Positions 25,057 through 25,553 of a stretch of DNA of 45,087 nt are shown here, in pieces. Positions within the stretch are counted from its first letter, which is position 1; each line of letters starts with the position of its first letter. Location: NCBI GenBank assembly GCA_023247085.1, contig JAHFHC010000008.1, positions 1 to 45,087 of the forward strand, written 5' to 3'. A model generated the notes under the pieces. The model was given only the letters and a program-made list of their open reading frames with translations. It was not told where the DNA came from and did no database searches. Both the position numbers and the translations under genes were made by a program. This DNA is from Microcaldota archaeon (lineage in GTDB: Archaea; Micrarchaeota; Micrarchaeia; Norongarragalinales; UBA8480).

Positions 25057-25253
25057 GGGGGATTGGGCTAGCCTGGCTATGCTTCCAGCTTTGGGAGAGC
25101 CTTTTCTTTTTTACAAAAAAGAAAAGCCTCGGGAAAAGAAAAAACCCGTACGCTCAAAAAAAGCTGGAGACCTGAGTCAACCTTTTCTTTTCAAAAAGAA
25201 AATGTTGATGAAAAGAAAAATAGGTTGCAGGTATTCGAATCTCAGATCCCCCA
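25057..25253 (+). tRNA. tRNA-Pro(TGG) with two introns: 25096-25161 (37/38) and 25177-25233 (T-stem/T-loop, 53/54)
   Basis: Acceptor GGGGGAT/ATCCCCC + A73; CCAGC-TTTGGG|A-GCTGG anticodon arm; CTGAG|TTCGAAT-CTCAG T-arm only contiguous after intron removal; intron 2 BHB: CCTG/CAGG helix, AGT and TAT bulges, inner CAACC/GGTTG; spliced length 74. Confidence 0.85.
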
Positions 25254-25267
25254 TTTATTTTTTTTGC

Positions 25268-25350
25268 AAAGAAAATGTGTATAGCTTTTTTAACATGGTT
25301 TATCCTATTTTTACTTGGAAAGTTCCCGCCTTAGCTCAACGGTAGAGCAC
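25268..25350 (+). repeat. Direct repeat copy 1: promoter region + tRNA-Tyr 5' half (tRNA part 25325-25349)
   Basis: AAAGAAAATGTGTATAGCTTTTTTAAC...CTATTTTTACTTGGAAAGTTCCCGCCTTAGCTCAACGGTAGAGCAC nearly identical to 25389-25471. Confidence 0.9.
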
Positions 25351-25388
25351 TCAACGCGCGCCTTTCTTTACAAAAGAAAGCCGCAGGG

Positions 25389-25471
25389 AAAGAAAGTGTG
25401 TATAGCTTTTTTAACGCTCTTTATCCTATTTTTACTTGGAAAGTTCCCGCCTTAGCTCAACGGTAGAGCAC
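25389..25471 (+). repeat. Direct repeat copy 2: promoter region + start of complete tRNA-Tyr
   Basis: 83-bp near-identical direct repeat, offset 121 bp from copy 1. Confidence 0.9.
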
Positions 25472-25553
25472 CCCGCTGTAGCACTGTAATCTCACTTTTA
25501 AAAGTGAGACAATAGAAACGGGGCGGTTGTTGGTTCAAATCCGACAGGCGGGA
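25446..25553 (+). tRNA. tRNA-Tyr(GTA) with 36-nt intron at 37/38 (25482-25517)
   Basis: CCCGCCT/AGGCGGG + A73 (C1-G72 as in archaeal tRNA-Tyr); CCCCG-CTGTAG|A-CGGGG; GTTGG-TTCAAAT-CCGAC; intron hairpin TCTCAC-TTTTAAAA-GTGAGA; relaxed BHB CTGT/ATAG. Confidence 0.92.

What the first reader, a model, noticed from the sequence alone, without database searches (positions are those of the whole stretch)
25325..25388. Orphan 5' half of tRNA-Tyr with its own promoter, ahead of the complete gene
25268-25350 and 25389-25471 are an 83-bp near-identical direct repeat carrying the upstream region plus tRNA-Tyr nucleotides 1-26. Copy 1 then diverges into CTCAACGCGCG plus a hairpin and has no 3' half before copy 2 starts. 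It could be an incomplete tandem duplication (pseudo-tRNA), a transcribed tRNA fragment, or one half of a trans-spliced (split) tRNA of the kind known in Nanoarchaeum and some Crenarchaeota. The GC-rich CGCGCG tail directly after the half is the position where split-tRNA halves carry pairing tails.
Basis: partly seen in the sequence, partly recalled or inferred. Interest (0 to 1): 0.72.

Follow-up and report, generated by a model that had tools for sequence, protein, structure and literature searches.

The report
tRNA-Tyr fragment left by intron-type insertion
Next to an intact tyrosine tRNA gene, a tiny archaeon carries a broken copy that ends in a small, peculiarly symmetric RNA element; the same element sits in dozens of this organism's tRNA introns and in ribosomal RNA, and in relatives it also leaves broken gene starts in front of intact genes, so this looks like a scar of that element rather than half of a split tRNA.

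Summary
The duplication is real: 25268-25350 and 25389-25471 match at 78 of 83 positions, carry promoter plus tRNA-Tyr nt 1-27, and copy 1 has no 3' half. The split-tRNA reading is not supported: the only AGGCGGG 3' half with a T-arm in the 92%-complete genome belongs to the adjacent intact gene, no 3' half with a complementary tail was found, and three relatives have one ordinary tRNA-Tyr. The 'pairing tail' is one copy of an element found ~38 times in this Micrarchaeota genome (control 3), mostly in tRNA introns, once in 16S rRNA, with matches in 52 of 196 genomes of the phylum. Its layout: short outer helix, pyrimidine strand Y, its complement R1, then R2, the mirror image of R1 (mirror better 107, direct better 8), as for a three-stranded fold. 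The arrangement 'gene start - element - complete gene' recurs in relatives (several tRNAs, GAPDH, NAC): 11 of 145 copies against 17 of 4540 control positions. Best reading: a pseudo-tRNA left when this intron-associated, probably mobile element went into tRNA-Tyr with duplication of 83 bp. The fragment is ordinary; the element and the recurrent duplication are, as far as I could find, undescribed. No RNA or read data were available.

The parts
25268..25350 (+). repeat copy 1: leader/promoter plus tRNA-Tyr nt 1-27 (left copy of the duplicated segment)
25286..25293 (+). TATA-like TTTTTTAA of copy 1, 39 nt upstream of tRNA nt 1; a T/A-rich box at about the same distance precedes the sister's gene
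   Evidence: assignment by position, inferred
25325..25350 (+). orphan 5' part of tRNA-Tyr (acceptor 5' strand, D-arm, A26, C27)
25351..25388 (+). 38-bp insert between the two copies
25358..25395 (+). element: outer helix GCG/CGC (25358-25360 with 25382-25384), Y TTTCTTT 25363-25369, loop ACA, R1 AAAGAAA 25373-25379, linker GC-CGC-AGGG, R2 AAAGAAA 25389-25395
25389..25471 (+). repeat copy 2: leader/promoter plus nt 1-27 of the complete gene
25407..25414 (+). TATA-like TTTTTTAA of copy 2
25446..25553 (+). complete tRNA-Tyr(GTA); exons 25446-25481 and 25518-25553
   Evidence: Rfam RF00005 54.9 bits; fold z-score -4.5
25482..25517 (+). canonical 37/38 intron of tRNA-Tyr (no Y-R1-R2 element)
   Evidence: boundaries by convention
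25057..25253 (+). tRNA-Pro(TGG), missed by ARAGORN and Rfam, with two introns that hold the same element
   Evidence: sister copy has the first intron only
25097..25141 (+). element copy in the anticodon-loop intron of tRNA-Pro
25177..25233 (+). T-arm intron of tRNA-Pro with element copy; exon ACCTG (25170-25174) complementary to intron CAGGT (25228-25232), as expected of a BHB junction; absent from the sister

Best explanation
Copy 1 is a tRNA-Tyr pseudogene fragment produced by an intron-associated, probably mobile element. The element (core about 38 nt) lies inside BHB-type introns of many tRNA genes and of 16S rRNA in this Micrarchaeota genome. It went into the tRNA-Tyr gene just after position 27, and the event duplicated the 83 bp to its left (promoter plus nt 1-27), so that a complete gene remained downstream while the upstream copy kept only the 5' part capped by the element. 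Shown: duplication; identity of the tail with the element family; recurrence of gene-start/element/complete-gene in relatives; single tRNA-Tyr in relatives; no 3' half found elsewhere. Inferred: that insertion caused the duplication; that the element is mobile; that copy 1 has no function; that the element folds as a three-stranded structure.
For: Element family: the pattern occurs 38 times in the genome against 3 for the reversed control; most own copies are in tRNA T-loops, anticodon loops or D-loops. The tail of copy 1 has every part of it (outer helix GCG/CGC, Y/R1 stem, mirror R2 8/8). Recurrence: 11 of 145 element copies have a direct repeat whose left copy ends 0-11 nt before the element and whose right copy follows it, against 17 of 4540 control positions (Fisher p 2e-10); the neighbouring genes that stay complete include tRNAs (L164, L229, L233, L220), GAPDH (L223) and NAC (L230), the last two confirmed by Pfam; in L220 two successive 5' fragments of one tRNA, each ending in an element, precede the complete gene. 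Relatives: single tRNA-Tyr in L079 (same genus), L237 and L238 (same family). The family changes on a short time scale: the T-arm intron of tRNA-Pro is present here and absent in the sister.
Against: In several relatives the duplicated segment starts at or just before the likely RNA start, whereas here it starts 57 nt upstream and includes the TATA-like box; the mechanism may differ. Only 2 of about 38 own copies show the duplication. No transposase or homing gene was tied to the element. The 11 cases include orthologous insertions (L164 and L229), so independent events are fewer, and they concentrate in one genus (G017, G024).
Confidence: 0.58

Rival explanations
1. Copy 1 is what is left of a second, complete tandem tRNA-Tyr gene that carried an intron of this family near position 27/28; a deletion between AAAGAAA in the intron (R2) and AAAGAAA upstream of copy 2's promoter removed the rest of the intron, the 3' half and the spacer.
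For: The junction falls exactly in a 7-nt microhomology: R2 at 25389-25395 equals the AAAGAAA at the left end of copy 1, 25268-25274; introns of this family sit at several tRNA positions.
Against: Needs three steps (duplication, intron gain in one copy, deletion) and does not explain why gene-start/element/gene recurs in unrelated genes of relatives. No intron at 27/28 is seen in tRNA-Tyr of three relatives.
Confidence: 0.25
2. Copy 1 is the 5' half of a split tRNA joined in trans to a 3' half elsewhere.
For: Own promoter-like box, tRNA 5' part, GC-rich tail; the genome has intron-rich tRNAs and a splicing endonuclease gene with two Pfam matches, and split tRNAs are known in other archaea (PMC3218864, PMC4033280).
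Against: No other AGGCGGG next to a T-arm; no 3' half among the best sites complementary to the tail; the same tRNA is encoded intact next door; the GC tail pairs in cis.
Confidence: 0.03
3. The fragment plus element is a retained functional leader or small RNA, transcribed from its own promoter, perhaps stabilised by a three-stranded fold.
For: The tRNA part is unchanged (0 differences in 26) while the upstream part has 5 in 57; promoter-like box kept; orthologous fragment-element-tRNA arrangements are kept in two species of one genus (L164, L229).
Against: The 0/26 versus 5/57 contrast is not significant (p 0.32); some of the other fragments have lost D-arm pairing, as expected of decaying copies.
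Confidence: 0.09
4. Assembly artefact in a metagenome-assembled genome.
For: Only one assembly of the species was available, in 36 contigs.
Against: The copies differ at five positions and the junction is a 7-nt match, too short to make an assembler join wrongly (inference); the arrangement recurs in other assemblies.
Confidence: 0.04
5. Cis-spliced intron: the 121-nt segment between equivalent points of the two copies is an intron, so the transcript from promoter 1 also gives mature tRNA-Tyr.
For: Removal of 121 nt in any register within the tRNA part of the repeat gives the same tRNA.
Against: No register offers a canonical BHB (best: 4 of 4 central and 2 of 3 exon-helix pairs, inside the D-arm, a simplified test).
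Confidence: 0.01

Closest known systems
tRNA-Thr 5' fragment upstream of the complete, intron-bearing tRNA-Thr in Caldiarchaeum subterraneum (Sugahara et al. 2012, PMC3293823)
   Same: A 5' tRNA fragment as a direct repeat upstream of a complete gene, linked to intron gain and to an inserted element.
   Different: There 1.8 kb with a recombinase gene lies between and a pNOB8-type integrase is proposed; here 38 bp with no gene, and the insert is an intron-type structured element.
Archaeal BHB tRNA introns with repeated sequences in Thermoproteales (reviewed in PMC4033280: similar introns in diverse tRNAs, taken as large-scale intron transposition)
   Same: One intron family spread over many tRNA genes; exon-intron complementarity at the junction (tRNA-Pro T-arm: ACCTG/CAGGT).
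   Different: The element here has a purine-mirror third strand and a covarying outer helix, occurs in Micrarchaeota and in rRNA, and is also found outside introns with flanking gene-start duplications. I did not compare it with Thermoproteales introns.
Split and permuted tRNAs (Nanoarchaeum, Caldivirga, Desulfurococcales, Thermofilum; PMC3218864, PMC4033280)
   Same: A separate 5' tRNA part behind its own promoter-like box.
   Different: No 3' half, no complementary tail on another half, intact gene present.
Group I introns of Micrarchaeota rRNA (PMC6125680)
   Same: Introns in rRNA of the same phylum.
   Different: Those listed there are catalytic introns of about 250-750 nt; the element here is about 40 nt and matches no Rfam family.
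RNA three-strand folds (from general knowledge, not tested)
   Same: Y-R1 duplex followed by a strand of the right symmetry to lie along it.
   Different: The well-known cellular RNA triple helices mostly use a U-rich third strand; here it is A/G-rich and antiparallel to R1.

Membership tests
split tRNA | separately encoded 3' half whose acceptor strand pairs with the 5' half | tested here: not met
   CNNNNAGGCGGG occurs 9 times; only 25541-25552 (the intact Tyr gene) is preceded by a T-arm; genome about 92% complete, so about 8% is unseen, and acceptors with G-U pairs were not searched
split tRNA | complementary tails on the two halves forming a BHB | tested here: not met
   five sites with one mismatch to GCGCGCGTTGAG, none followed within 220 nt by a T-loop or AGGCGGG; the many two-mismatch sites (total 64 against 54 in the control) were not inspected
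split tRNA | own promoter of the half | tested here: inconclusive
   TATA-like TTTTTTAA at 25286-25293 by position; transcription not testable
permuted tRNA | 3' half upstream of the 5' half in one transcript | tested here: not met
   upstream lies tRNA-Pro 25057-25253 and no AGGCGGG
archaeal BHB intron (the insert in copy 1) | both splice sites with exon-intron complementarity | tested here: not met
   no 3' exon of its own and no canonical BHB in any 121-nt register
archaeal BHB intron (another member, tRNA-Pro T-arm) | exon-intron complementarity at the junction and clean exons when removed | tested here: met
   ACCTG/CAGGT; removal restores the sister's sequence
Y-R1-R2 element family | Y/R1 stem, outer helix, R2 as mirror of R1 | tested here: met
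   GCG/CGC outer helix and 8/8 mirror in copy 1
integrase-generated tRNA fragment (pNOB8/SSV type) | integrase or recombinase gene between the fragment and the complete gene | tested here: not met
   38 bp between the copies
known Rfam family | match above gathering score in the element | tested here: not met
   only tRNA and rRNA families reach it

The most novel reading that the evidence does not exclude
Micrarchaeota carry an undescribed small mobile RNA element whose core folds as an intramolecular pyrimidine-purine-purine triple strand; it spreads through tRNA and rRNA genes as BHB introns and, where it is not spliced, inserts with duplication of the start (or end) of the target gene, so that essential genes survive. 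The tRNA-Tyr fragment is one such scar, and the process is a direct route to tRNA halves.
Probability: 0.35. Interest if true: 0.85.

Novelty: new variant of a known kind. Interest (0 to 1): 0.6.

Why it matters
How tRNA genes become broken into introns and halves in archaea is an open question. A family of short elements that can be seen both as spliceable introns and as insertions flanked by duplicated gene starts gives a concrete, testable intermediate between intact, intron-bearing and fragmented tRNA genes. The mirror-symmetric third strand, kept with covariation across a phylum, is also a candidate for a purine-rich RNA triple helix in cells. It helps to explain why standard tRNA finders miss many tRNA genes of such genomes (one of at least three in the window; 11 above cut-off in the genome).

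Tried and rejected
Split tRNA (the first pattern had one base too many and missed even the known 3' half; repeated correctly). Cis-splicing of the 121-nt segment by BHB. Group I intron or other Rfam family in the tail. Alternative anticodon arm in copy 1: CTCAACGCGC offers no T33 (by inspection). R2 as a simple second copy of R1 for alternative pairing: direct repeat better in 8, mirror better in 107. Selection on the tRNA part of copy 1: not significant. A first control for the flanking repeats was faulty because its windows overlapped the same repeats; a script error stopped the next; one search is the valid control. Literature searches for a three-stranded motif in tRNA introns, for Micrarchaeota with split tRNA and for structured RNA in Micrarchaeota found no description; only open-licence papers are held, so this is weak evidence of novelty.

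Full report
What was claimed and what is there. This is correct. The copies match at 78 of 83 positions; four of the five differences form one block (ATGG/GCTC). The complete tRNA-Tyr(GTA) at 25446-25553 scores 54.9 bits and has an ordinary 37/38 intron. Upstream, at 25057-25253, is a tRNA-Pro(TGG) that ARAGORN and Rfam both miss; it has two introns.

Organism. The window is a contig of a 0.89-Mb, 92%-complete genome; the nearest named genome with the same operon (exosome genes, L37Ae, tRNA-Pro, tRNA-Tyr) is Candidatus Micrarchaeota archaeon C4_metabat.bin.26.

Is it a split tRNA? A partner would need a T-arm followed by AGGCGGG. With the right spacing and up to two mismatches, the only full match is the intact gene itself. 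Of all nine CNNNNAGGCGGG sites only that one has a T-arm; this looser pattern was chosen so that a T-loop intron in the 3' half would not hide it. The five closest sites complementary to the supposed tail are not followed by tRNA sequence. The same tRNA is intact next door. Relatives have one tRNA-Tyr: L079 in the genus, L237 and L238 in the family. So the split-tRNA reading is rejected as far as 92% of the genome allows.

What the tail is. CGCGCGCC-TTTCTTT-ACA-AAAGAAA-GCCGCAGGG-AAAGAAA resembles stretches in both introns of tRNA-Pro. A pattern for it occurs 38 times in the genome, the reversed control 3 times. By a simple signature 15 of 37 distinct own copies are in tRNA T-loops and 8 elsewhere in tRNA bodies; among the other 14 are the tRNA-Pro T-arm intron, the finding itself, a 16S rRNA insertion (recognised by eye in L107), a tRNA trailer and a few copies outside tRNA genes. 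Relatives have it too: 44 matches in G009 and 56 in G039 (the latter include overlapping matches), control 0 in both. Over a sample of the phylum 52 of 196 genomes have at least one match, in a patchy way. In G009 several copies lie within the spans of SSU and LSU rRNA. No Rfam family covers the element.

Anatomy of the element. From 146 non-overlapping copies: a short outer helix; a pyrimidine strand Y; a short loop, mostly 2-4 nt; R1, the reverse complement of Y; a linker that holds the 3' strand of the outer helix; and R2. R2 is the mirror image of R1, not a copy of it: among 136 copies with an asymmetric R1 the mirror fits better in 107, the direct repeat in 8, with 21 ties; 75 mirrors are perfect against 5 direct; a shuffled R1 does as well in 15 on average. 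The search pattern does not favour mirror over direct. G outside the fixed seed is mirrored by G in 60 of 84 cases, A by A in 296 of 305. In the best-defined class the outer helix pairs in 95 of 96 cells, against 41 (maximum 59) when partners are shuffled. R2 runs parallel to Y and antiparallel to R1, which is the geometry of an intramolecular Y-R1-R2 triple strand. This fold is inferred from symmetry and covariation; it was not measured. Many copies are related, so the counts are not independent events.

Copy 1 belongs to the family. Its outer helix is GCG (25358-25360) with CGC (25382-25384), Y 25363-25369, R1 25373-25379, R2 25389-25395. R2 coincides with the left end of repeat copy 2.

The arrangement recurs. 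For each copy I asked for a direct repeat whose left member ends next to the element and whose right member follows it. The window's case scores highest; ten more are found among 145 copies. Random positions away from elements give 17 of 4540 (Fisher p 2e-10), and flanks swapped between copies 8 of 2912. The ten include 5' parts of tRNAs ahead of the complete tRNA (L164, L229, L233, and L220 with two successive fragments), the start of a GAPDH gene (L223) and of a NAC gene (L230) ahead of the complete genes, and a 3' tRNA fragment after a complete tRNA (L166). L218 shows a shorter case. In these a gene that the insert would have broken survives because its start (or end) is duplicated. A tandem duplicate truncated by chance would not predict this; insertion with duplication does. 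Caveats: L164 and L229 are orthologous, most cases come from one genus, and elsewhere the duplicated segment starts at about the likely RNA start, whereas here it starts 57 nt upstream and includes the TATA-like box.

Recent change. The sister's tRNA-Pro has the anticodon-loop intron but not the T-arm intron; removing the latter restores the sister's sequence, and exon ACCTG is complementary to intron CAGGT as in a BHB. Gain here or loss there cannot be told apart with two genomes. The genome encodes a splicing endonuclease with two tRNA_int_endo matches; the enzyme of ARMAN-1 and -2 has been reported to cleave non-canonical introns (PMC4033280).

Most likely history. The element entered tRNA-Tyr after position 27 with duplication of 83 bp; the upstream copy is a remnant. 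A rival with the same end product is a complete tandem duplicate with an intron, cut back at the shared AAAGAAA. Both make copy 1 a pseudo-tRNA. Whether it is transcribed is not testable here.

Novelty. 5' tRNA fragments ahead of a complete gene are known (Caldiarchaeum, PMC3293823), and intron families spreading among tRNAs are known (PMC4033280). Direct repeats near intron borders have been taken as marks of insertion (PMC11782384). What I did not find described is the mirror-symmetric element, its spread over Micrarchaeota, and the recurrent duplication of gene starts. Only open-licence papers could be searched.

Noticed in passing
G000 genome, e.g. L089-L118: Many tRNA genes of this genome are interrupted by one or more introns, very often in the T-loop, so only 11 reach the Rfam cut-off and ARAGORN finds one in the window.
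   Followed up: partly
L177 (G009:C63:4100-11200): rRNA operon with many insertions: the SSU match spans 2.9 kb for a 1.48-kb model, with several element copies inside SSU and LSU rRNA and one in the tRNA between them.
   Followed up: partly
L217-L233 (G017, G024): Many element copies of this genus share a similar tail after R2, about TTTAGTTTGCGAATCA, as a repeated mobile element would.
   Followed up: no
L223, L230, L222: The ORF that starts in the duplicated gene start reads through the element and stops just before the start codon of the complete gene (GAPDH: TGA-ATG).
   Followed up: no
25295-25298 and 25416-25419: Only clustered difference between the two repeat copies, ATGG against GCTC; GCTCT in copy 2 is complementary to AGAGC of copy 1. 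Unexplained.
   Followed up: partly
1513-2534: Tandem array with a 129-bp period, units about 76-82% identical, unrelated to this finding.
   Followed up: no
25254-25325 against L079:8080-10748: In the sister, an asparagine synthase-like gene and a further gene lie between tRNA-Pro and tRNA-Tyr; here they are missing from this place.
   Followed up: no
L103 (G000:C26:3846-3879): Second own-genome copy flanked by a direct repeat, between the splicing endonuclease gene and the next gene, antisense to both.
   Followed up: partly
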